Origin: a virus
Reading direction: 5' to 3' (one strand)
IMG/VR virus record: IMGVR_UViG_3300027896_000068
Coordinates: 1 to 47,678 of that record
Length of the DNA stretch: 47,678 nt
Numbering within the stretch: the first letter of the stretch is position 1; the number at the start of each line of letters is the position of its first letter. Made by a program: the position numbers and the translations under genes. This document shows, piece by piece, positions 15,699 to 47,678 of the stretch. The notes under the pieces were generated by a model that was not told where the DNA came from, did not search any database, and saw only the letters and a program-made list of their open reading frames with translations.

Positions 15699-15880
15699 AT
15701 TATCACTCGTATTATCACTCGTATTATCACTCGTATTATCACTCGTATTATCACTTGTATTATCACTGCTATTATCACTCGTATTATCAAATTATGGGAG
15801 CTCCTATTCGATTTGATAATAGTGGTGATAATTAGGGTGATAATTGGGTTGATAATAGTGGTGATAATCGTAGTGATAAT
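15699..15880. repeat. Divergent 12-bp iterons, probable replication origin
   Basis: Eight copies of ATTATCA spaced exactly 12 bp (starts 15699, 15711, 15723, 15735, 15747, 15759, 15771, 15783), mostly followed by CTCGT, face six inverted copies TGATAAT, also exactly 12 bp apart (starts 15814, 15826, 15838, 15850, 15862, 15874). The centre holds palindrome GGAGCTCC. The inverted arm keeps only the heptamer; its 5-bp fillers vary. Regular iterons flanking a palindrome beside a long AT-rich tract are the usual build of a phage or plasmid origin. The likely ligand is the replisome organiser at 32066-33259. A partition or regulatory site is the alternative. Confidence 0.75.
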
Positions 15881-15909
15881 ATGGGGTTAAAGTGACCACT
15901 ATATAAATA

Positions 15910-22451: not shown

Positions 22452-22634
22452 CTAAGAAACGAACGATCTAAAATGATACCAGAGAACTCTTGCTTTTTCG
22501 CGACCCATGCCTTTAGGGATTTTTAACTCCGGTATGACGCCATACTTAATGTAAAGTCTCAGGAGCCGTCTGGAGTAAATCCTATCCTGCCCTTCCAGGC
22601 TGTCCGTCCATTCTGCCGCTTGACGGAGACCCAT
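22452..22634 (-). CDS. Small basic protein downstream of the repressor
   Basis: This 60-residue protein begins MGLRQAAEWTDSLEGQDRIY. It is Arg-rich and helical, with RLLRLYIKYGVIPELKIP and a MerR/excisionase-like spacing of short helix, R-x-L-R-x-Y, turn. Its ATG overlaps the repressor stop (TGATG), so it is made from the same mRNA. A small DNA-binding protein is likely but not proven. About 270 bp between it and the DUF4124 gene hold no gene. Confidence 0.55.
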   Translation of the reverse strand: MGLRQAAEWTDSLEGQDRIYSRRLLRLYIKYGVIPELKIPKGMGREKARVLWYHFRSFVS

Positions 22635-23344
22635 CAAATTCTTTTCATGACGCGAATCACCCGGCCGGTAATTTGAACTTGTGGAAGAGCTATGCCCAAA
22701 TTTATATTCATGGCCGGGTATGATCGGTTATCGTTTATCATATCAATTCCCCCGTCCATCCGGTGCATCACGCGACGGATTTTGATTTCGTCGTTGATCC
22801 GGAAGGCGTAAATACCATCTCCTTCGATATTCTTGATTCGCTTATCAATCAGAAGCAGATCTTGATATGTAAGTGTCGGTGTCATGTTGTCACTATCCAT
22901 AACCCAAACCAGGAGATCTCGTATATTCTCCGAAAATTCGGACATAACCCAACTCCTCTTGAGTTCCAGGATTGCTCGAAACACTTCCGGTAGTGCTAAC
23001 TGTTCGGCATTTGAGACTAAAACTTGATTCTCGCCTAAATCCCGTAATGGCGATGACGAAAGAACGCTATTTTCCATTTTGGATCCTTTCTCTTTCATAT
23101 TCATTATTTTAAATATTGCATTCCGATCCAGGTCCGGTTTTTTTTCGATCATCCTATCGGGCCACGTATTCGGGATCTTCTTATTTGCTATAGCATTACT
23201 GATGCCTCCAATGGTTATCCCAAGGAAATTAGCAAATTCTTTCTGGGTACGACAACCTGCCAACTTCATCAATGGACGAAGATTATTGGTTTTAAAAAAA
23301 TTATCTTCAAAAAATTCATCTTCGGTGTATTTTTTTGTTGACAT
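22634..23344 (-). CDS. CI-like repressor with S24-type C-terminal domain lacking the canonical dyad
   Basis: From ATG 23344 the protein has 236 residues. The N-terminal helix-turn-helix is GCRTQKEFANFLGITIGGIS (about 30-50). The C-terminal domain follows the LexA/CI S24 pattern, VMDSDNMTPTL then DLLLIDKRIKNIEGDGIYAF and IKIRRVM. The usual GDSMxP serine position holds Asn (DNMTP) and the usual Lys before R-V/L is Arg, so RecA-stimulated self-cleavage is probably lost. It should repress the promoters that carry TTTTGGTGTAT. No ribosome site precedes 23344; a TTG start at 23392 is the alternative. Confidence 0.75.
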   Translation of the reverse strand: MSTKKYTEDEFFEDNFFKTNNLRPLMKLAGCRTQKEFANFLGITIGGISNAIANKKIPNTWPDRMIEKKPDLDRNAIFKIMNMKEKGSKMENSVLSSSPLRDLGENQVLVSNAEQLALPEVFRAILELKRSWVMSEFSENIRDLLVWVMDSDNMTPTLTYQDLLLIDKRIKNIEGDGIYAFRINDEIKIRRVMHRMDGGIDMINDNRSYPAMNINLGIALPQVQITGRVIRVMKRI

Positions 23345-23366
23345 AGGTATAGTTTTGGTGTATAGT
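23338..23366 (+). promoter_or_regulatory. Rightward promoter over the repressor start, with operator word
   Basis: TTGACA, a 17-bp spacer and TATAGT form a strong sigma-70 promoter reading right, opposite to the repressor gene. It overlaps the repressor's start codon. The spacer and -10 contain GTTTTGGTGTAT (23352-23363), 11 of 12 bases identical to the early-promoter word. This is the expected PR-type switch for the gene at 23518 and the operon beyond. Confidence 0.75.
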
Positions 23367-23517
23367 CCACCTTGAAGCTCGATACTGAGCAATCAAAGTA
23401 AACCAAAGCAAGATGATTTGTAGTGTTTTACCGCTTTTTACCCAAGCTACTACACTTTAGTTGGATTGTCAAGCAGAAAATGAATGAATTTGAATTTATT
23501 TTAGAGGGAGGAAAAAA

Positions 23518-24162
23518 ATGAAGGAAGAAAGCGTCGTTCAGCATCAGGATGCAGAGTTTCTGGGTCCGCTCAGAAAAAAGAATTATGCGGAAAAAATGGA
23601 ATATCTCCGTGAGGGGCAAAACATCTGGAGAGAAGGTACGTATAGAATTCTCCAGAGTGCCAGAGCGATTGAGCTGACCGGAGATTACACCACGGGGAAT
23701 TACGAGACGTTCGAGGAATGGTTGAAGAAGGAGACCCCTTTTACTCTCGGAATCTATTATAAGTATCTGAAAATTGCCTGGTCATTCACCAAGGAGTTGA
23801 TCTTCAGGGCCGGGGGGATACCAGCCTTCAGGCAAATAAGATCTTCTCAACTCAAAGACCCTGAGTACCCAAAAGTGGTCGTGGGCAAGATCGAGCACGA
23901 AGAGGAGGTAAATCCTAAACATCCAGATTATCGTCGCGTCCTTAAAGAACTCGCCGAACGGGGCGCGAAAGTACCCAACCCGAACCGCCCAGGGAACAAA
24001 CTCGCTCAACTCGCGCTGAAGCTAAACCAAAAAACAAAACGAATCAGTCAGCTCGAAGCCGAGAACGAATCTCTGAAGACCAAACTTGGCAAATACGAGA
24101 TGACGATCGACGATCTGAAGGCCCAGATCAAGGAGTTTCAAACCGGCAAGAGAATGATGTAG
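23518..24162 (+). CDS. DNA-associated coiled-coil protein, first gene after the switch promoter
   Basis: The 214-residue protein has an N-terminal helical domain (NIWREGTYRILQSARAIELT to FTLGIYYKYLKIAWSF, about 35-90), which looks like the N-terminal part of phage and plasmid proteins that precede a coiled coil, and a clear C-terminal coiled coil (NQKTKRISQLEAENESLKTK, about 168-208). A GAGGGAGGAAAA ribosome site precedes ATG. Its stop TAG lies inside a degenerate first unit of the repeat array at 24157, and the array fills the space to the next gene. It could be an early regulator or a partner of the HhH protein; no family is firmly recognised. Confidence 0.7.
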   Translation: MKEESVVQHQDAEFLGPLRKKNYAEKMEYLREGQNIWREGTYRILQSARAIELTGDYTTGNYETFEEWLKKETPFTLGIYYKYLKIAWSFTKELIFRAGGIPAFRQIRSSQLKDPEYPKVVVGKIEHEEEVNPKHPDYRRVLKELAERGAKVPNPNRPGNKLAQLALKLNQKTKRISQLEAENESLKTKLGKYEMTIDDLKAQIKEFQTGKRMM

Positions 24163-24490
24163 CCAGATCACCTTTGAAAACCAGACTTCCTGTGCGAGGC
24201 ATTCAGGGCCTGAAACCCACAAGGCGAGTGCGAGCCAGCTCGTAGCTGAAAACCAAAGAAGAATTGCGAGCCAGTCCCTCAATGAAAACCACGACCCATG
24301 TGCGAGCCACAAAACCATTGGAAACCAGTCTTGCCGTGCGAGCCATGGAAAGAGTTAAAACCAAAGGATTCGTGCAAGCCACCGACGCGATAAAAACCAA
24401 ATCAGCTATGCGAGCCACTATTGTTTTGAAAACCAATATGTTTTTTGCGAGCCAGTAGTTGTATGAAAACCAATAGATAAATGCGAGGAG
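24157..24490 (+). repeat. Array 1: 36-bp units of two fixed 9-mers alternating with variable 9-mers
   Basis: Nine units of TGAAAACCA-N9-TGCGAGCCA-N9 follow a degenerate TGTAGCCA that contains the upstream stop codon. A-type blocks start at 24175, 24211, 24247, 24283, 24319, 24355, 24391, 24427 and 24464. The period is exactly 36 bp except for one 10-base variable block in unit 8. Fixed blocks vary little: five A blocks are exact and four differ at one base; six B blocks are exact. The variable blocks are all different. The last B block reads TGCGAGGAG and supplies the ribosome site of the HhH gene. The array fills the gene gap completely. Confidence 0.95.
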
Positions 24491-24496
24491 GCAATT

Positions 24497-25504
24497 ATGG
24501 AAGATGAAATCCGCGAAGAAGAAGAATTAGAAAACGGGGAAGAACAGAAGAAAATTGAAATCAAGCTGCCTGGCTATCTGGATGAACTCAAGCCGGATGT
24601 TCGGCAGAATCTTCTTGAACTGTCCATCTTTTGTTCCCGTGAAAGATTCCTAAAACGGGCGAGACAGTCCATGAAGAATTATGTGGCCAGCATCAAGAAT
24701 ATACTTTCCGAAAAGGGCTGGACGGTGGCAAAAATCGAATTCGTGGAAGACCAGATTAATGCCGTCCAAAAGATGATCGATCAGGTCGAGAAAAATATCG
24801 ACCTATGCCTCTTCCGGATTTCGATCTGGACTCAATTTCTCGAAAAGATAAAAGGTCTAGGAGCCTCTACCGCAGGTGGGATTATCTCGACCATCGGTAA
24901 GATTGATAGATTCCCATCTATTTCTGCTTTGCGAAAATACTCCGGTTGGTATCCACAAGATGGTAAGGCGATCAGGAAAATCAGCGGGGCCAAGCTATGC
25001 TATAGCCCCAAGTTGAAGCAATACCTATACCATTTCGTCAGCGGGATCATGAAGGCGAAAGATCCTTATTACTATCCGATGTACCTGGCGGAGAAAGAGA
25101 GGATCTACAAGATTCATCCCGAATACGTGGATAGGAAGGCCACAAAGAAACAAAAGATCGATGGCATCCCAAGCCATGTTCACAAGATGGCCCTGAGAAA
25201 AGTTATTCAGATGTTTCAATCGGATCTCTTCTGCATCTGGAGAGACATCGAAGGTCTTCCCCCTACCCTGCCCTATGCAATAGCCGTTCTCGGGCATGAA
25301 CATTTCAGGAATCCGCTCACAGAGAATCCGTATTACAAAAAGAGCCCGCTGGACTTTGAAAACCAGCCAGCCGCTGCGAGCCACTATCTTCTTGAAAACC
25401 AAAAGAGAGTTGCGAGCCAGAGGTCCGGTGAAACCCAACGCACTGATGCGAACCAAGATCCGGGTGAAACCCCTCGCAGCTGTGTGAGCCAGGAGAATCA
25501 TTAA
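24497..25504 (+). CDS. IS110-type helix-hairpin-helix (Transposase_20-like) protein without DEDD domain
   Basis: The 335-residue protein begins with an acidic stretch. A helical region with coiled-coil character (about 45-115) follows, then IKGLGASTAGGIISTIGKID with RFPSISALRKYSGW (about 118-152), the HhH core of the IS110/IS116/IS902 C-terminal domain. Then come KLCYSPKLKQYLYHF, a His/Lys-rich segment (HVHKMALRKVIQMF, about 230-245) and PYAIAVLGHEHF. IS110 transposases also carry an N-terminal RuvC-like DEDD nuclease domain; none is present here, so transposition by itself is unlikely. The last 48 codons are array 2 units, giving ENQ-x9-type repeats. Arrays sit on both sides. Confidence 0.8.
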   Translation: MEDEIREEEELENGEEQKKIEIKLPGYLDELKPDVRQNLLELSIFCSRERFLKRARQSMKNYVASIKNILSEKGWTVAKIEFVEDQINAVQKMIDQVEKNIDLCLFRISIWTQFLEKIKGLGASTAGGIISTIGKIDRFPSISALRKYSGWYPQDGKAIRKISGAKLCYSPKLKQYLYHFVSGIMKAKDPYYYPMYLAEKERIYKIHPEYVDRKATKKQKIDGIPSHVHKMALRKVIQMFQSDLFCIWRDIEGLPPTLPYAIAVLGHEHFRNPLTENPYYKKSPLDFENQPAAASHYLLENQKRVASQRSGETQRTDANQDPGETPRSCVSQENH

Positions 25505-25671
25505 AACCAAATCGGAAATGCGAGCCAGGGTTGGCGTGAAAACCAAAAAGCATCTGCGAGCCATCCATCAGATGAAACCCATCAGGTTGATGCGAGCCAG
25601 TATTCTATTGAAACCCAAGAAGTAATTGCGAGCCAAAAAGAATATGAAACCCAATATAAGAATGCGAATTC
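25357..25671 (+). repeat. Array 2: 36-bp dual-motif array, partly coding
   Basis: Nine units with A blocks at 25357, 25393, 25429, 25465, 25501, 25537, 25573, 25609 and 25645 and B blocks 18 bp later. Every fixed and variable block is exactly 9 bp. Here A is TGAAAACCA or TGAAACCCA; six of nine B blocks are exact TGCGAGCCA. The first four units code the end of the HhH protein as E-N/T-Q...A-S/N-Q/H repeats until the fifth A block, TTAAAACCA, gives the TAA stop. After that stop the same frame stays open to a TAA at 25685-25687, just before the next gene. Confidence 0.95.
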
Positions 25672-25687: not shown

Positions 25688-26017
25688 ATGAAAAAATTAT
25701 TTCTACTTTTTTTTCTGGCGCTGGCGTTGATGATGGCGGGATGTACTAAGGTTCCTAACCCCGAGATCATATATCGAGACAAGATCATTCTCCAAGATAA
25801 GATCGTATATCGAGATAGATGCTCAAGCGAAGAAAAGAGTTACCAATTCAGGTGTGGGCAAGCGTTTCAATATGGTCGCATTCAGGCGACTCTCCACCAT
25901 AATAAGTGCAATCAATTAACGGCAACGGGGAAAATATGTGATTTTGAAAATCGAGAACAAAAAGAAAATTGTTTTAGACAATGCGAAGAGGGTTTTTTGG
26001 ACCAAAGTAGGAATTAA
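25688..26017 (+). CDS. Small phage lipoprotein
   Basis: This 109-residue protein has a signal peptide with lipobox LMMAGC (MKKLFLLFFLALALMMAGCT), so it is probably lipidated. The mature part has an I-I-Y-R-D-K-I-I-L-Q-D-K-I-V-Y-R-D repeat and four further Cys (C-x6-C...C...C) that could pair as disulphides. AAAGG precedes ATG, 16 bp after the end of array 2. It might block superinfection or modify the envelope; no specific family recognised. Confidence 0.7.
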   Translation: MKKLFLLFFLALALMMAGCTKVPNPEIIYRDKIILQDKIVYRDRCSSEEKSYQFRCGQAFQYGRIQATLHHNKCNQLTATGKICDFENREQKENCFRQCEEGFLDQSRN

Positions 26018-35055: not shown

Positions 35056-35501
35056 ATCCCATTATTGCAATTTTAGTATTTTTGTGCTCTGTCGCGGATG
35101 ACGTGATGTACGTATTCTTTGTCCAATTTATCATGAGAAAGAAGGTCATTCCGGCAAGCGTATTATCCGGTTTGCTTACCGGCCTGGTCTCGTTTGGAGT
35201 AATGATGTATGCCGATTTGCATGCCTATGTTCTACCCAATATCATCGGGAGCGTTCTGGGAACCCCATTGGCCATGTGGGTGGATAGAAAGTATTTCAGC
35301 CGATCGGTCGAGAAGCAGATGAAGGCAAATTGCCCAAAGTGTGGACGCATTTGCTCAGACATAACGGCTGAACTTAATGAGCGTGGAATTGGTAAGGTAA
35401 CAGGATTCTGTAAGGTCCATGGTAGGGAATCATTGAGCGGTTGGGATTACGGGGATTTTGCACCGAAGAAGGTAGTCCAGCAGTCAGGGAAACAGATATG
35501 A
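35052..35501 (+). CDS. Membrane protein with C-terminal zinc ribbon
   Basis: This 149-residue protein from TTG 35052 has hydrophobic segments about 3-25 (IIAILVFLCSVADDVMYVFF), 37-58 (VLSGLLTGLVSFGVMMYADL) and 62-80 (VLPNIIGSVLGTPLAMWV). A cytoplasmic tail follows with NCPKCGRICSD and FCKVHGRE, probably a zinc ribbon. It resembles small membrane proteins of phages that share the DD-V-x-Y-V-F-F start, but no role is known. Confidence 0.65.
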   Translation: MNPIIAILVFLCSVADDVMYVFFVQFIMRKKVIPASVLSGLLTGLVSFGVMMYADLHAYVLPNIIGSVLGTPLAMWVDRKYFSRSVEKQMKANCPKCGRICSDITAELNERGIGKVTGFCKVHGRESLSGWDYGDFAPKKVVQQSGKQI

Positions 35502-36127
35502 AAGATTTGAGAATAGAAATCAAAATCAAAAACAATCTCATTTTCCAGAAGATTAAAGAAATTTATGGGGATATTTCCATAGCAGAATTTTGTCAAAGAA
35601 TAAATATACAAGACACCGAAATGAGTTTTATTTTAAATTTCAAGAAAAGTCCCATTATAAAGCGTCGTAACGGACCTACAAGCTGTGGTGTTGATGGTTT
35701 AACGGGATTTTATTGGAGGAAAATTGCGATTGATATTTCAATCGCCCTAAATTGTCTACCAGAAGATTTATTCCCTGAACATTTAAGAGAGGTCCGCAAG
35801 AATTTCTATGCACTTGAAATTGACTCGGCTATTTTGATAGCCGCTACGGAGAGATCAGAAATTAAGAATCCAGAACAAATAATGCTAGCAAATGAAACAA
35901 AAGACCATACAAGGGAAGGTATTGTAAGGGTTTTATCTGCTCTTACAAGACGCGAAGAGTTGGTTTTGTGTAAACGATTTGGATTTGATGGAGAAGAAGA
36001 ACTCAGTTTGGATGCAATCGGAGAAATGATATCGTGTAGCAGAGAGCGAGTTAGGCAAATTGAACTTAAGGCATTAAGAGAATTGCGGCATCCTGCGAGA
36101 GCAGAATATTTACGAAAATATATGTAG
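35498..36127 (+). CDS. Sigma-factor region-4-like regulator
   Basis: The 209-residue protein ends with a clear sigma-70 region 4: ALTRREELVLCKRFGFDGEE, LSLDAIGEMISCSRERVRQI, ELKALRELRHP (about 150-200), containing the -35-recognising helix-turn-helix. The N-terminal half is not a recognisable region 2, so it is not a complete sigma factor. A phage protein of this kind may redirect host RNA polymerase, for example to the late leftward promoter at 14726. ATG 35498 overlaps the previous stop (ATGA). Confidence 0.8.
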   Translation: MKDLRIEIKIKNNLIFQKIKEIYGDISIAEFCQRINIQDTEMSFILNFKKSPIIKRRNGPTSCGVDGLTGFYWRKIAIDISIALNCLPEDLFPEHLREVRKNFYALEIDSAILIAATERSEIKNPEQIMLANETKDHTREGIVRVLSALTRREELVLCKRFGFDGEEELSLDAIGEMISCSRERVRQIELKALRELRHPARAEYLRKYM

Positions 36128-40810: not shown

Positions 40811-41029
40811 GTGGAAAAAAATCTGTGTGATCAATGTGAAAACCAACATGGGCCAACGGAAAATCTCTGCACATTAAGACAAGCATTCTTTATGGGGATA
40901 GATAAATTCAATGAACAAATTCGTATAGAATGTCTTCCTGGAGGGACTATTAAAAATGCCTCCTTCCAGTTTTCTTATAATTTTGAAGTTCAACAATGCC
41001 CTCATTATAAAGGAAAATTTAGTTATTGA
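40811..41029 (+). CDS. Small Cys-rich protein, last rightward gene
   Basis: This 72-residue protein is taken from GTG 40811, which AAAGGAGATTGTT precedes; it begins MEKNLCDQCENQHGPTENLC. C-x2-C-x9-C and a later CPHY suggest zinc binding. Its last codons overlap the end of the convergent giant gene by 7 bp, so no intergenic terminator exists. Confidence 0.62.
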   Translation: MEKNLCDQCENQHGPTENLCTLRQAFFMGIDKFNEQIRIECLPGGTIKNASFQFSYNFEVQQCPHYKGKFSY

Positions 41030-44000
41030 TTCGAGATCATCTGATTCCCAAACCTAAGATACTTCTTCTCCGGCTTGGCCTGAACCGATCTTCTCAGCAT
41101 TTGTGAATTGATGGGCGGTATCACCCCCCGGTATTGAGACACTTCCATATTATACTTCTGAACATCTTTGATCACGCCTTGGCGCTCTTCCGGGGTCTTG
41201 GCCAGTCTAAAACGTGCCTCAATCTCTTTTCTCTCCGCATCGTAGTGCTGCTCGACATTGGCAAATGTTCGATGAGTCCCGGCCATCCGTGATATTCTCT
41301 CGGGCCGGAATCCCAAGGTCTGAGCTGCGGCTTCCGGGGCAGTCTCCACAATCGGTTTTCCGCTAACATCATATAGAGGCTTCCCGGTTGGAGTCGTGGC
41401 CCCCTGGCTGGCCATCCGGACCGCCTTCATGATATTTTCAATGAAGATCGGCGAAGCGTTCTCAAATGCCCGGGTGTACTGATCCAGGCTGATTTGCTTG
41501 TACGCTCCGGTAGCCTTCTGGGCCAATCCCCCCCAAACGCCCGTTACGGTCTCTGTGGCGCCCTTGAGAGGGTCACTGATAGATGGTAGACCGATCTTAA
41601 GGGATCCGCTCATATCCACGCCTGTGGGCAATACCTGGCCCAGCATGGCCGGGATTCCGGCGACTCCGAGCTGCTCCAGGGGTTCCCCGCCAACCTGGCG
41701 CAAAGTGTTGCGCATTTCTGTCCTGAACGGCCGGCCGAAGAATTTTTCCAGCTCATCAAGAATGTCATCCAAAAAGGGCAGAGCCGGGGCCCCCCCGATG
41801 ATCGCAAACCAGGCCAAAGACCGGATAAGGACATCAGAGTTCTTAAGGCTGATCTTGCCATCAGCTCCACGCATAGAATAGATCATGGCCAAGATGTAGT
41901 TATGATTGAATCTTCTGAACGTGTAGGCCGTTCCGAGAAGTTGCGAGGCCAGGTCTCCACCCCTCATGGCATGGGGAAGATTTGCCCGGGTCATTAAGTT
42001 ATGGACATCATAGACGTAATCACGGGTCTTGGTGGCAAGTTCTTCGCCTCCCAATCCCAATTCCTGATATACCCGATATGCAGCCAATGCCGCACTATTA
42101 CGGTTAAACTTTTCTATGAGGGAGAACGGTGCCATCATAATATCCATTACGTTGCCAATGATCCCCGGGGTTCCCCCACGGGTTTCCCGGGAGATCTGCC
42201 GTATTTGCTGATCATTGTTGATCCCGGAGTTGACCATTTCGTGGAGTATCATCTTTTCATCATCAGTTCCATGACCCATGGCTACATCCCACATGGCTTT
42301 GATATAGGATCGCTCGGCGGCCAAGGGGCCCTTACCCAGGGGTTTCATGATCCGGGCCAAGAAGGGTATACCCTGGACAAAGTTCTGAGTGAAGTTCAAA
42401 GCGGCCGATCGGACGGACCCACCCAAATACCAGATTGCGGCGAACGCCCGGGCCTTGGACATGGATCGATCCATGGACTCGAAGTTACGGAGCATGCTGG
42501 AGGCGTAATGGGACATCTCCTCAAAGAGTTTGGGCTGATCCTTTGGGACGGCCTGGAGAGAGTCCATGAAGTCAAAGGCTGCTTCCTGCTTGGTTTCTGC
42601 CCCCATGTAACCAGTGATGTAGTTCATCAGGACTTCTTTGAGCCCGGTGGTCTTATAGCCCTCGATCAAACGTGGATTACGATGGATCTGGTGAGCCCCG
42701 GCACCACGGGCGAGAAGCATTTCGCCCACGCTTTGGGCCAAGGCGTTCCGTAAGCCTTCATGGGTGGCCTCCGGGATTTGTTCTCCGGCCTTGAGTTTAT
42801 CGATCGATTTATCAATGAACCGCATGAGATTCATATCGGACATGCCGAAGAAAGCGCTTTCCTGCTCTTGGGTCCACCGGCCATAATTTACCTTGGCGTC
42901 CGGATACTGGGCCTTGAGATCCTTGACCATATCCATGGTTTCGCGTTGGGTATTCTTGAACCCGAAATAGGCCGGGACTTCCCGGGGATTCCCCTCAGCA
43001 TCGTTTTCAGTTACCCAAACGGAAATATAGAAATTGCCCTTCTCTCGTTCCCGCGGAAAGTATCCCTTGTACCGCTGGATGTCCTGGCGGATCTGCCGGA
43101 TGAGATTCATCGGCTTTTGGAGTTTATCGATGATCTTGGCGATGTTGGGATCAAGAGCCGCCTTCTCTTCATCCGTCAATTCTTTTTTGTAATTCTCTTG
43201 AAGTGTTGCAAATTCTGCATCGGTTAAAGTACGTTCATACGGACGCAAGAGCATCCTTTCGGCATGATCGAGCTTGCGTTTGAAAAGTTGCTCTAGGGTC
43301 GCACGTACGGAGTGATAGGCTTCCCGGCCAGCATCCGTGAGATGAAATTGATTTATAAGTTGATCATTGGTATAGATAAAATTCTCTTTGTCTCCTTGGG
43401 ATAAAGCCTTTTCGACTTTATCCAATTCCGGGCCGCTAAGATTCAAGAATGAATTGGTGGCCTCTTTGAATTGAACCACTCCCGCAGATCGATTCTGCTC
43501 ACGTTTCAGTTGATCTTCCACCATAACTTTCAATTGAGGATATTTTTTTGCAAGATGCCATGGAAGGGAAAGCTGTTGTTCCAAAATATTCAAATCTTTA
43601 TTATCGATGAATCCAAAGCCCATCTTGTTCTTGACCCACTTGATAAAGCCGGGATCGGCGGCTGCCCGGTGGGCCATGTACTGATCGGTGTTTTCCAGAT
43701 TATTGGCGGCCAATTCAGGAAGAATACTTCGGGTTTCGGGTAGAAGAGTTTTGAGTCCAGCGACATTTTGCGCGTCACGTTGTCGCGCCTTATCCATGAT
43801 ATCCTGGAAGCTAGGACGTTCGCCAATCTCACCGAGTTTATCATAGAAATTAGAAAGCAGACTGGGATTGCTTTTGGGACCATAAATAATATGGTTCATC
43901 CATTCCAAAAACCGTTGCCATAGATTTTTCTGCACTTGGCCTTTTTCTACTTTTTCAATTCCATCAATAGTTTTCAGCATATCTCTGACTTCGGGATGAG

Positions 44001-47000
44001 CCAACTGGGAAAGCATTTCATGGGGACCACTCAGGGCATAATAGAACTGGGGACTATGCTCTGTCAGCCCTTGCTCTGCATAGGTCTTGGATCGCCCGGT
44101 TCTATCGGTCTGTGGATCCTCCCATATTTTCTTTTCTTTTTCAGACATAACGCTTTCAGCCCGACGCATCATCTCCATGAGTTCGGCGCGATCTGCAACC
44201 GTCATCTTGTTTGCAATGATGCCATGGATGACTTCATGGAAAATAGTTCTGGAGGCTTGCTCGGGAGTTTTGTTTTGCATCAAAGATGGATCAAGCCAGA
44301 CATCTCCTGTCGCCTGATTGTAATACGCAGCACTTCCCGGCTTCCGCGAAATCATATCCGGGCGCAACGTTTTGATGGGAATATTATGAAGCTCGGGGCT
44401 GTACTTCCTCAGAAGTTCTTTGCCCAACATCTTATCTTCGGCGGGGATGTCCGGGCTGTTATTGATGTGACGAATAGCCTCATGGGCTGGATAAGATTCG
44501 CCGGGACGCAAGAGGACTTTCTGATGTTCTTCGGGGAGACCTTTGGCAGCCATGTCTTCGGCGGGGGCCTCTCCGCGGGGAGTAACTTTCTGAATTTTAT
44601 CCATCGGAACTTCGATGGAGGCCATGTCTTTATTTTTAATCAAAGACTGGTCTTCGGGGAATACGAGGGCCATCTTTCCGGGCGTATCATAATCCCGAAC
44701 TTTACCGTTCTGAGTCTTTCCATTCTCATCGGTGAAGGTAACGAAGTCTCCGGCGCGTGGTTCTTGAGCGGGGGCTTCTTTCATCGCCCCCAGTTCTTCC
44801 TGAATCTTTTTCCCGAACATATCAAACTGTTCGCCTTGATATTTTTTACCCGTCCTCTTTACTTCGTGCTGCCGTTTGGTTTCCTCTGCAAAGCTTCGGA
44901 GAACCTTTTCGTATGTCTCTGGACTATCAAAACGCAATCTATCCAATTGCCGAGCATTCTCTTCGGTTAATCCAAGAGTCTTGATCTCCCGAGCATTAAG
45001 GGCCGGGGGAATCCCTGCTTTCTCTTCAAAATATTTTTCCAATTCGGAGATATTCTCTTCTGAATATTCCTGTGTAGTTTTTGCAACACGCGGGGTCTTG
45101 TTCTCCTGGGCGGAGATATCATTCTTGAGCAATTCCATTAAATCATTGCTGGTGGAATCCTTGGCCAGCCATCCTTCATCGATAGCCTGTTTGGCGAGCT
45201 CATCAAAAGTCCGGCCATTCTCTTTGGAAAGAAGCATGGGGATGCCGCTTTCTTTTTGCCGGAAAGATTCAGTCCCGGTTGATTCATCCCAGATACCGCC
45301 TTTGGAACGTACCCATCCAAGAAGGGTATTTGGTTCGTTAATTGTCGTCTTGGGGGTTTGAATCTTTTCCCCTGTCTCTGCGGTAGGCTGACCGGCAAAT
45401 TGAATCTCTGGCCTGACTGGACCAGGGGCCGGTGCGGCAGCGGCTACCGCTCCAGGCTGGGTTAATTTTTCCCCCTCTTTCCCTTGCACGAGAGGCTCTT
45501 TCTGCGGGGCCACGGCTTGGGAAGCGACCGCTGGGGCGGTGATCTGTGTTCCAGCTTCAGGCTTGAATCCTTGTGGATTCATCCGGAATTCGTGTTCTCG
45601 TTCGCTGGCTCGGGCATGGGCCGGATCATATCCCATCCCTTTGGCCATCTCTTGGCGTTCAAGAGCTTCGTGATAAGTCAATTGAGGCCTTTCTGAGGCC
45701 TTGTTTGCATTGTCAATCCAGATGGTATCTTTGGGGATAAACGGATAGACTAAATCATGCCCGCCTTCGGTAAAATCGGTTTTAAAAAGAGAACGGACTT
45801 TATCACCATCGACCAAAGCGATACGCTTTCCATCTTCCGTGCGACCGAGATCTTGGAGTTCGACCGATTTTTGTTCTTCGGGAGTAACTTCCCCGGCAAG
45901 TTTGATTCCTTCGCTGCTTGCCCTTTCATCTGCTTCTTTCCGATCCCCAAGCTTCCGGGCATCTTCAGGTGATTTCCCTTCGTCTAACATCTTTTGAGTA
46001 TAAAGGGCATTGTCTAGGAAGAAATGATATTCCTCTGGGGTTTTGCTCTGGTCGATCCAGACCTGACCCTGAGGGATAAACGGGAAGTCCGCGTGTGTAC
46101 CGAAATCGGTGAATTCCTCCCCTTCCTTCCCATAATCCCGGCGCACTGTCTCCCCATCCACGATCAAAGCCTTGATATTCCCACGGGTGGCATATTCACT
46201 CACGACCGGAGCTTTTCCTTGGGGCGCTGGCTCAGCGGCTTTGGCAGGGGCAGGGGTAATGGGTTTCTCCCCTTCTCCTTGTACGGGGACGGGGGAGTTC
46301 GCCTGTCCTGGGGCTTCTGGCTTCGTCGGGGCTAGCTCTGCGGATTGTGGAAGTTTGATATTTATATTTTTAGGCTCAAGCGGACCTCGTGATCGAATGA
46401 GAGTCCCCGTTACGCTCTTGGTTTCTGGTAAAATTTCTTTAATTAAATCTTTAGCTTTTGTTAAACCCTTGACTCCAAGACCATTACCACCAAGCCAGGC
46501 TATGTGTGCATTTTTTGTATCTTTATCAAAATCAATATTTACTTGCCCTACTTGGCGGTTTCCTTCCTGAATGCCAAAAGCATAAAGAACCTTGTCCGGT
46601 TGATCGTTCTCGCTTAATTTGCTGATCGAAATTTGACCACCTTGGTATGGTGAAAATGATTCTTCCGTATTAGCAGGAGCCGCCGGGGCCGCTTCCTTGC
46701 CAGGAATCACCATGGGAGGCTTTGCGGCCTTTGGCGGGGTTGGGGCCGGCGGTTTTGGAGCGACTTCCGTTCCCGTTGGCTCTTTTGCTCCTACCGGTAC
46801 TTCTGGGCCGGGCCCGGTCTGTGGGGCCGCTTCAGAAGGCGTAGTCGCTTTAGGCGTGGTTGGTATAGGTGCCTGCGCGGGAGGAGTTGACGTTTCCGGT
46901 GTAGGGGTTACCTGTGGAGGAGGAGTCACAGGCGGGGCAGCCTCACCGGGGGTTGCCTCCCCCTCGGGCGCAAGCTTTTCGATTTTGGGTTGGAGCCATT

Positions 47001-47678
47001 CGGAAACATCTTGATCCAGAGGGATCACTTCTTTATTGAGTACGGCTTCGGTCGCTCTGATTTTCCACATTGCTCCAAGTTTAGGATCTGCTTCACCGAG
47101 AACCTTGGCTATCGTATCGACGGTCTGTCCGCGAACGTCTTCTGGTGTATTCGGATCGGATAGTGCAGATTCGAATCTCTTGGACATGATCCGGTTTAGA
47201 GGATGGGCCATTCCTAGAGTCATGGCGGAAAGAACGGCCGTAGGGCCTACTACGCTCAGGGCTTCTTTTAAAAGATCTGCATCGGGTCGGATTCCAGACG
47301 CTTTCTCAACGGCGGCCTCTCCTGCTTGCTGGCCCATTTCCGTGCCGACTTCAACGGGGATCGTCACGCCGAAAAACTCTCGCATCATCCGGGAGAATCC
47401 GGGCCTGATAATATCTTTGATGGCGATCTTCCCGCCTTTGGAAACTACGGGGGCCAGGGGGCCAAAGAGTCTTTGGAGGGCTATTGTTCCAGCCGTCTCG
47501 CCAAGGGCCTCGATTCCACCAGTGGCGTATGGAGCCATGCCGGGTTCGACTTTGGCTTTTTCTGCGGTTTCCTTGGTTTGCTGGGCTTGGGATAATCCGA
47601 ACAGGGCACCAGCCGCGATACCGGCCGGGACTACACCTGCACCACCAGCCGCAAGAACGGCCGGAACGGCTAAGATCG
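41023..47678 (-). CDS. Giant polyvalent virion protein (runs off the right edge)
   Basis: At least 2,218 residues are visible; the frame stays open past the first in-window ATG (47538) to the edge, where a hydrophobic Ala/Gly-rich segment appears. Counting from 47538: Pro-rich linkers (about 190-290, 400-455); a GNAT-like segment VGQVNIDFDKDT...GLTKAKDLIKEILP (about 300-385); a duplicated module with DFPFIPQGQVWID and YPFIPKDTIWID (about 455-545, 565-655); SH3-like FVTFTDENGKTQNGKVRDYD (about 925); a zinc-peptidase site FHEVIHGI (about 1098-1105) after NQATGDVWLDPSL; long helices; and a C-terminal part SVRSAALNFTQNFVQGIPFL resembling large polyvalent-protein domains (LPD38-like). Such proteins are carried in the virion and injected with the DNA. 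Confidence 0.85.
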   Translation of the reverse strand, partial: ILAVPAVLAAGGAGVVPAGIAAGALFGLSQAQQTKETAEKAKVEPGMAPYATGGIEALGETAGTIALQRLFGPLAPVVSKGGKIAIKDIIRPGFSRMMREFFGVTIPVEVGTEMGQQAGEAAVEKASGIRPDADLLKEALSVVGPTAVLSAMTLGMAHPLNRIMSKRFESALSDPNTPEDVRGQTVDTIAKVLGEADPKLGAMWKIRATEAVLNKEVIPLDQDVSEWLQPKIEKLAPEGEATPGEAAPPVTPPPQVTPTPETSTPPAQAPIPTTPKATTPSEAAPQTGPGPEVPVGAKEPTGTEVAPKPPAPTPPKAAKPPMVIPGKEAAPAAPANTEESFSPYQGGQISISKLSENDQPDKVLYAFGIQEGNRQVGQVNIDFDKDTKNAHIAWLGGNGLGVKGLTKAKDLIKEILPETKSVTGTLIRSRGPLEPKNINIKLPQSAELAPTKPEAPGQANSPVPVQGEGEKPITPAPAKAAEPAPQGKAPVVSEYATRGNIKALIVDGETVRRDYGKEGEEFTDFGTHADFPFIPQGQVWIDQSKTPEEYHFFLDNALYTQKMLDEGKSPEDARKLGDRKEADERASSEGIKLAGEVTPEEQKSVELQDLGRTEDGKRIALVDGDKVRSLFKTDFTEGGHDLVYPFIPKDTIWIDNANKASERPQLTYHEALERQEMAKGMGYDPAHARASEREHEFRMNPQGFKPEAGTQITAPAVASQAVAPQKEPLVQGKEGEKLTQPGAVAAAAPAPGPVRPEIQFAGQPTAETGEKIQTPKTTINEPNTLLGWVRSKGGIWDESTGTESFRQKESGIPMLLSKENGRTFDELAKQAIDEGWLAKDSTSNDLMELLKNDISAQENKTPRVAKTTQEYSEENISELEKYFEEKAGIPPALNAREIKTLGLTEENARQLDRLRFDSPETYEKVLRSFAEETKRQHEVKRTGKKYQGEQFDMFGKKIQEELGAMKEAPAQEPRAGDFVTFTDENGKTQNGKVRDYDTPGKMALVFPEDQSLIKNKDMASIEVPMDKIQKVTPRGEAPAEDMAAKGLPEEHQKVLLRPGESYPAHEAIRHINNSPDIPAEDKMLGKELLRKYSPELHNIPIKTLRPDMISRKPGSAAYYNQATGDVWLDPSLMQNKTPEQASRTIFHEVIHGIIANKMTVADRAELMEMMRRAESVMSEKEKKIWEDPQTDRTGRSKTYAEQGLTEHSPQFYYALSGPHEMLSQLAHPEVRDMLKTIDGIEKVEKGQVQKNLWQRFLEWMNHIIYGPKSNPSLLSNFYDKLGEIGERPSFQDIMDKARQRDAQNVAGLKTLLPETRSILPELAANNLENTDQYMAHRAAADPGFIKWVKNKMGFGFIDNKDLNILEQQLSLPWHLAKKYPQLKVMVEDQLKREQNRSAGVVQFKEATNSFLNLSGPELDKVEKALSQGDKENFIYTNDQLINQFHLTDAGREAYHSVRATLEQLFKRKLDHAERMLLRPYERTLTDAEFATLQENYKKELTDEEKAALDPNIAKIIDKLQKPMNLIRQIRQDIQRYKGYFPREREKGNFYISVWVTENDAEGNPREVPAYFGFKNTQRETMDMVKDLKAQYPDAKVNYGRWTQEQESAFFGMSDMNLMRFIDKSIDKLKAGEQIPEATHEGLRNALAQSVGEMLLARGAGAHQIHRNPRLIEGYKTTGLKEVLMNYITGYMGAETKQEAAFDFMDSLQAVPKDQPKLFEEMSHYASSMLRNFESMDRSMSKARAFAAIWYLGGSVRSAALNFTQNFVQGIPFLARIMKPLGKGPLAAERSYIKAMWDVAMGHGTDDEKMILHEMVNSGINNDQQIRQISRETRGGTPGIIGNVMDIMMAPFSLIEKFNRNSAALAAYRVYQELGLGGEELATKTRDYVYDVHNLMTRANLPHAMRGGDLASQLLGTAYTFRRFNHNYILAMIYSMRGADGKISLKNSDVLIRSLAWFAIIGGAPALPFLDDILDELEKFFGRPFRTEMRNTLRQVGGEPLEQLGVAGIPAMLGQVLPTGVDMSGSLKIGLPSISDPLKGATETVTGVWGGLAQKATGAYKQISLDQYTRAFENASPIFIENIMKAVRMASQGATTPTGKPLYDVSGKPIVETAPEAAAQTLGFRPERISRMAGTHRTFANVEQHYDAERKEIEARFRLAKTPEERQGVIKDVQKYNMEVSQYRGVIPPINSQMLRRSVQAKPEKKYLRFGNQMISNQ

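What the first reader, a model, noticed from the sequence alone, without database searches (positions are those of the whole stretch)
24157..25671. Two 36-bp dual-motif arrays flanking a DEDD-less IS110-type HhH protein
Both arrays alternate TGAAAACCA and TGCGAGCCA with variable 9-mers, giving A9-N9-B9-N9 for nine units each. The phase is exact over all but one unit. Variable blocks are all different. A and B share TGnnAnCCA, so the base period is 18 bp. The arrays fill both gene gaps: the upstream stop codon lies in a degenerate first B block, the HhH gene's ribosome site is made from the last B block, and array 2 starts inside the gene's 3' end. The protein keeps the IS110 HhH domain but no RuvC-like DEDD domain. 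IS110 elements are known to use a bridge RNA with guide loops encoded beside the transposase, so an RNA with many short guides read by a nuclease-less relative is a testable idea. I know of no described system with this layout.
Basis: partly seen in the sequence, partly recalled or inferred. Interest (0 to 1): 0.96.

Follow-up and report, generated by a model that had tools for sequence, protein, structure and literature searches.

The report
A phage TIGR-TasA guide-RNA system
This virus of microbes carries two rows of short paired guide sequences around a gene for a guide-RNA-binding protein: a new example of the TIGR-Tas RNA-guided DNA-binding systems described in 2025, here in a form with no DNA-cutting part and with targets still unknown.

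Summary
In detail: two arrays of nine 36-bp units (TGCGAGCCA-9-TGAAAACCA-9) flank and touch a gene for a 335-aa protein; none of 100 shuffles gave the repeat pair. The protein passes NCBI's TIGR-Tas model (103.8 bits, cutoff 100). Its predicted fold matches solved TasR (Z 21.9, 1.6 A over 204 residues) and TasH better than IS110 recombinases (Z about 14), with no nuclease domain. The arrays show the TIGR grammar: UG...CCA boxes, an edge repeat with an inner base pair, 9-nt spacers, truncated edge repeats at both ends. Fifty of 73 other virus DNA stretches with these repeats carry a Tas gene. Local features: the cassette lies beside a CI-like repressor, is absent from the one relative whose CI region could be read, and its array end forms the tasA ribosome site; array 2 is read as the protein's tail. 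No targets were found in the phage, its relatives or other TIGR phages. Most likely TasA uses 36-nt tigRNAs to bind, not cut, 18-bp DNA sites. New member of a known kind.

The parts
24161..24486 (+). TIGR array 1: 5'-truncated edge (AGCCA), nine units edge-spacerA-loop-spacerB, 3'-truncated edge (TGCGA)
24486..24491 (+). Shine-Dalgarno AGGAGG of tasA, overlapping the truncated last edge repeat of array 1
   Evidence: sequence; 40 of 74 array ends in the family are followed by a ribosome site and start codon within 50 nt, against 5.2% of random 50-mers
24497..25504 (+). tasA: solo-Nop (HhH) Tas protein, 335 aa; conserved fold residues 23-281, residues from about 283 to 335 are a translation of array 2
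25343..25667 (+). TIGR array 2: truncated edge (AGCCC), nine units, truncated edge (TGCGA)
23338..23366 (+). sigma-70-like promoter (TTGACA-17-TATAGT, 11 of 12) between the CI-like gene and the TIGR operon; candidate operon promoter (number of sites in the region is at chance level; chosen by context)
22634..23392 (-). CI-like transcriptional repressor, divergent from the TIGR operon
   Evidence: phrog_4 E 3e-17, phrog_6201 E 1e-15
23518..24162 (+). first gene of the operon, 214 aa with C-terminal coiled coil, function unknown; stop codon inside array 1
   Evidence: no homologue in the other TIGR loci
25688..26017 (+). next gene: small lipoprotein-like protein with weak similarity to Cor superinfection-exclusion proteins
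   Evidence: phrog_1119 E 2e-4

Best explanation
This is a TIGR-TasA system in the early operon of a temperate tailed phage. [quoted passage not shown] A TasA dimer holds one tigRNA. Spacer A pairs with one DNA strand and spacer B with the other, over an 18-bp site whose top strand reads A followed by the reverse complement of B. With no nuclease domain, TasA would bind and bend the DNA without cutting it, blocking transcription or replication of a competing element or of chosen host or phage genes. Shown here: arrays, protein family and fold, family-wide linkage, genomic position. Inferred from Faure et al.: processing, dimer, dual-strand DNA binding. Guess: what is bound and why. The confidence given is for the identity as TIGR-TasA; the biological role is much less sure (see rivals).
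For: NCBIfam NF052498 TIGR_Tas at 103.8 bits (cutoff 100; IS110 model 30.7 against cutoff 140). phmmer to PDB TasR 9mty E 2e-20 and TasH E 1e-6. AlphaFold model pLDDT 83; VIA Z 21.9 to TasR, 20.6 to TasH, about 14 to IS110 recombinases IS621/ISCro4, 8.6 to Prp31 (Nop). Array grammar as published: alternating repeats with UG/CCA boxes, 9-nt spacers, truncated edges. In 583 distinct units the edge repeat keeps a pairable 3-6 pair (499 C-G, 16 U-G) while the loop repeat is mostly A-C or A-A. 73 virus DNA stretches have the same repeats, 50 of them with a Tas gene; all 39 Tas proteins tested match NF052498. Spacers are not under coding constraint. The published FpTasA binds 36-nt RNAs from its array (PMC12045711).
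Against: No target could be found: no excess of A+rc(B) sites in the phage itself, in relatives, or around other TIGR loci, compared with re-paired spacers or wrong geometries. The score over the NCBI cutoff is narrow, and that model is named for endonucleases. No terminator was found on the + strand after array 2, where one is typical. RNA expression is not shown. DNA targeting was published for TasR and TasH, not for TasA.
Confidence: 0.93

Rival explanations
1. The arrays are operator or iteron-like DNA repeats (or coding repeats) and the protein is an IS110 remnant that happens to sit between them.
For: The ORF reads through four complete units and into a fifth; Pfam calls the domain Transposase_20; direct repeats near repressors are common in phages.
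Against: Same repeats linked to Tas genes in 50 of 73 other virus stretches; spacers all different, with no codon constraint; fold nearer TasR/TasH than IS110; precise TIGR grammar, including truncated ends.
Confidence: 0.03
2. Role, variant 1: TasA with its guides acts on the phage's own cycle: it binds sites in the phage genome or attachment region to control lysogeny or to help integration.
For: Position beside a CI-like repressor; Faure et al. suggest DNA bending could aid integrases. One weak own-genome site for unit 4 at 22501 (2 mismatches, gap 2).
Against: Own-genome sites with up to 2 mismatches: 1 observed against 0.38 with re-paired spacers; with up to 3: 1 against 3.1. Eighteen guides are many for self-regulation.
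Confidence: 0.1
3. Role, variant 2: the guides are aimed at competing phages or plasmids (RNA-guided superinfection exclusion by blocking, not cutting).
For: Mobile-element home of TIGR systems; accessory cassette missing in the relative whose CI region could be read; the next gene resembles Cor superinfection-exclusion proteins.
Against: No excess of target sites in the related phages fetched; published TasR gave no phage or conjugation protection in E. coli.
Confidence: 0.45

Closest known systems
TIGR-TasA (Faure et al. 2025, PMC12045711; e.g. Flavonifractor plautii FpTIGR)
   Same: Solo-Nop protein with adjacent dual-repeat array, 9-nt spacers, UG...CCA boxes, truncated edges at the array ends, arrays upstream and/or downstream of tas, home in a phage.
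   Different: Both arrays fill gene gaps of one operon; array 1 supplies the tasA ribosome site and array 2 is translated as the protein's tail; no terminator found after array 2; next to a CI-like repressor.
TIGR-TasR / TasH (PDB 9mty, 9w04)
   Same: Nop fold (Z 21.9 and 20.6), array layout, repeat boxes.
   Different: No RuvC or HNH nuclease domain.
IS110 family bridge-RNA recombinases (IS621, ISCro4)
   Same: Related Nop/HhH fold (Z about 14), dual-guide RNA principle.
   Different: No DEDD domain; array of many small guides instead of one bridge RNA; below the IS110 family cutoff.
Box C/D snoRNP Nop5/Nop58, Prp31
   Same: Nop fold (Prp31 Z 8.6); C and D box logic of the guide RNA.
   Different: No methyltransferase partner; boxes lie in 9-nt repeats; described TIGR targets are DNA.

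Membership tests
TIGR-Tas | Tas protein with a Nop domain of the Tas family | tested here: met
   NF052498 103.8 bits above cutoff 100; PDB TasR E 2e-20; Z 21.9 to TasR
TIGR-Tas | Array of two distinct alternating 8-12-nt repeats separated by 9-nt spacers | tested here: met
TIGR-Tas | Box D (UG) and box C (CCA) in both repeats; extra base pair in the edge repeat only | tested here: met
   583 distinct units: edge 3-6 C-G 499, U-G 16; loop mostly A-C or A-A
TIGR-Tas | Array begins and ends with truncated edge repeats | tested here: met
   AGCCA...TGCGA and AGCCC...TGCGA; same in relatives
TIGR-Tas | Array adjacent to the tas gene across relatives | tested here: met
   50 of 73 fetched stretches carry Tas, the window not counted; several others are short or edge fragments
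TIGR-Tas | Array processed to 36-nt tigRNAs bound by Tas | not testable with these tools
   needs small-RNA sequencing; shown for FpTasA in PMC12045711
TIGR-Tas | tigRNA-guided binding of dsDNA, one spacer per strand | tested here: inconclusive
   no excess of A+rc(B) sites in the sequences held; true targets may lie elsewhere
TasA subtype | No nuclease domain fused to the Nop domain | tested here: met
   fold match begins at residue 23; residues 1-22 too short for RuvC or HNH
IS110 transposase | N-terminal DEDD (RuvC-like) domain | tested here: not met
   only residues about 22-278 align, to IS621 residues 67-321; IS110 model 30.7 bits against cutoff 140
CRISPR-Cas | Cas effector or adaptation genes with 25-36-nt repeats | tested here: not met
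   repeats are 9 nt; no Cas match among the proteins scanned, though not all window ORFs were scanned

The most novel reading that the evidence does not exclude
A CI-controlled, nuclease-less TIGR-TasA cassette acts as a programmable RNA-guided repressor of the phage. Because the processing site of array 1 overlaps the tasA ribosome site, tigRNA maturation and TasA binding would also set TasA level, a built-in feedback not described for TIGR systems.
Probability: 0.15. Interest if true: 0.65.

Novelty: new member of a known kind. Interest (0 to 1): 0.36.

Why it matters
What TasA systems without a nuclease do, and what they target, is an open question of the 2025 paper. A compact locus in a temperate phage, with related phages to compare, two arrays and a candidate promoter beside a repressor, is a good place to ask it. 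The set of virus loci sharing these repeats (583 distinct 9+9 units) is a ready data set for target searches.

Tried and rejected
(1) The search for related loci with the protein alone found no close relative; the repeat pattern worked instead. (2) Target searches with A+rc(B), gap 0-2: no excess over re-paired spacers or wrong geometries in the window, its relatives, or about 670 kb around TIGR loci. An apparent excess at 4 mismatches in other phages (418 against 340) vanished against geometries of equal composition. (3) Idea that unit alleles shared between phages vary like codons of a target gene: rejected (14 of 30 sites in best phase, permutation p 0.95). (4) Coding-repeat explanation: no stop-codon depletion in the read-through frame. 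(5) ParB partner (TasParB of the paper): the upstream gene shows no ParB match in Pfam, NCBIfam or PHROGs and no homologue in other TIGR loci. (6) A terminator after array 2: none found on the + strand.

Full report
What is there. The window is a 47,678-base virus record. Two arrays of nine 36-bp units lie at 24161-24486 and 25343-25667. Each unit is TGCGAGCCA, nine variable bases, TGAAAACCA or TGAAACCCA, nine variable bases. The repeat pair occurs 15 times with up to two mismatches, all inside the arrays, and never in 100 dinucleotide shuffles. All spacers differ; one is 10 nt. The gene between the arrays (24497-25504) encodes 335 residues.

The protein. Pfam gives only Transposase_20 above its cutoff. 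NCBIfam gives NF052498, TIGR-Tas, at 103.8 bits over a cutoff of 100; the IS110 model scores 30.7 against 140. By sequence the nearest solved proteins are TasR (9mty, E 2e-20) and TasH (21kl, E 1e-6). An AlphaFold model from an alignment of 39 sequences has pLDDT 83 and pTM 0.76. It aligns to TasR with Z 21.9 (1.6 A, 204 residues), to TasH with Z 20.6, to the IS110 recombinases IS621 and ISCro4 with about 14, and to the Nop protein Prp31 with 8.6. The match starts at residue 23, so there is no room for a nuclease domain. The conserved fold ends at residue 281 (nt 25339), just before array 2 begins. Residues from about 283 on are array 2 read in frame, through four complete units to a TAA in the loop repeat of the fifth; locus L018 shows the same kind of tail.

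The family. Faure et al. 2025 (PMC12045711) describe TIGR arrays: alternating edge and loop repeats with UG and CCA boxes, 9-nt spacers, truncated edge repeats at both ends, next to Tas proteins. TasA, TasR and TasH bind 36-nt tigRNAs; TasR and TasH use spacer A on one DNA strand and spacer B on the other. Every sequence feature checked fits. TGCGAGCCA is the edge repeat: over 583 distinct units from the window and other viruses its positions 3 and 6 are C-G in 499 and U-G in 16, whereas the loop repeat is mostly A-C or A-A. Both arrays begin with a truncated edge (AGCCA, AGCCC) and end in TGCGA, as in relatives. Scans of IMG/VR with the repeat pair gave 73 stretches; 50 of them, besides the window, carry a Tas gene, and all 39 Tas proteins scanned match NF052498. 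A genome scan found the repeats in six contigs labelled with diverse phyla; four of these six show a tas-like match by tblastn.

Setting. A CI-like repressor (22634-23392, minus strand) faces the operon; a TTGACA-17-TATAGT site lies at 23338. Next come a 214-aa gene of unknown function, array 1, tasA, array 2 and a small lipoprotein-like gene with weak similarity to Cor superinfection-exclusion proteins. The stop codon of the 214-aa gene lies in the first edge repeat and the tasA ribosome site AGGAGG overlaps the last. Arrays ending near a ribosome site are common in the family (40 of 74 ends, against 5.2% of random 50-mers). The phage has a terminase and an SU10-type portal. A relative with syntenic genes (G006: L091 and L121) has a CI homologue but no Tas match; between CI and its homologue of the window's 27430 gene there is under 1 kb, against 4 kb in the window. 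The Tas search of the ten relatives came back empty without a positive control in the same call, and most are fragments, so absence rests on G006. The TIGR operon is therefore probably an accessory cassette.

Predicted tigRNA spacer pairs (A/B). Array 1: GATCACCTT/GACTTCCTG, TTCAGGGCC/CAAGGCGAG, GCTCGTAGC/AAGAAGAAT, GTCCCTCAA/CGACCCATG, CAAAACCAT/GTCTTGCCG, TGGAAAGAG/AAGGATTCG, CCGACGCGA/AATCAGCTA, CTATTGTTT/ATATGTTTTT, GTAGTTGTA/ATAGATAAA. Array 2: GCTGGACTT/GCCAGCCGC, CTATCTTCT/AAAGAGAGT, GAGGTCCGG/ACGCACTGA, AGATCCGGG/TCGCAGCTG, GGAGAATCA/AATCGGAAA, GGGTTGGCG/AAAAGCATC, TCCATCAGA/TCAGGTTGA, GTATTCTAT/AGAAGTAAT, AAAAGAATA/ATATAAGAA. The target geometry A+rc(B) is my inference from the published 8-nt 3' overhangs.

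Targets. No excess of such sites was found in the window, in related phages or around TIGR loci, compared with re-paired spacers or wrong geometries. The target is unknown; the host is unknown too.

Verdict. What stays open is the function of nuclease-less TasA.

Noticed in passing
L007, L008, L010, L013, L019, L020, L021, L022: Related contigs share TIGR units in shuffled order; among pairs of distinct units with identical spacer A, 8 of 11 also have spacer B within 4 mismatches, so the A-loop-B unit seems to move as one.
   Followed up: partly
units of L047, L048, L064, L067 and others: In some lineages both spacers mostly end in G (e.g. 25 units of L064: 80% of A, 96% of B), and over 583 units C is rare at position 9 of both spacers (about 10%); either 10-nt repeats with 8-nt spacers or a preference at the target centre.
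   Followed up: partly
IMGVR_UViG_3300036863_000086 (L030, L049, L061, L064): One 72-kb virus record gave four fetched stretches with many TIGR units, far more than most records.
   Followed up: no
window 15699-15885: About seven copies of a 12-bp repeat ATTATCACTCGT followed by TGATAAT repeats in the opposite sense, in a gene-poor stretch; looks like an iteron or operator region.
   Followed up: no
window 41023-47538, minus strand: A 2171-aa ORF without any Pfam match.
   Followed up: no
window 35441-36127: Protein whose C-terminal part resembles an RNA polymerase sigma factor family of phages (phrog_351, E 1e-14).
   Followed up: no
L121 11814-12512: A protein with a ParB-like N-terminal part, by eye, close to the CI homologue in the relative that lacks TIGR.
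   Followed up: no
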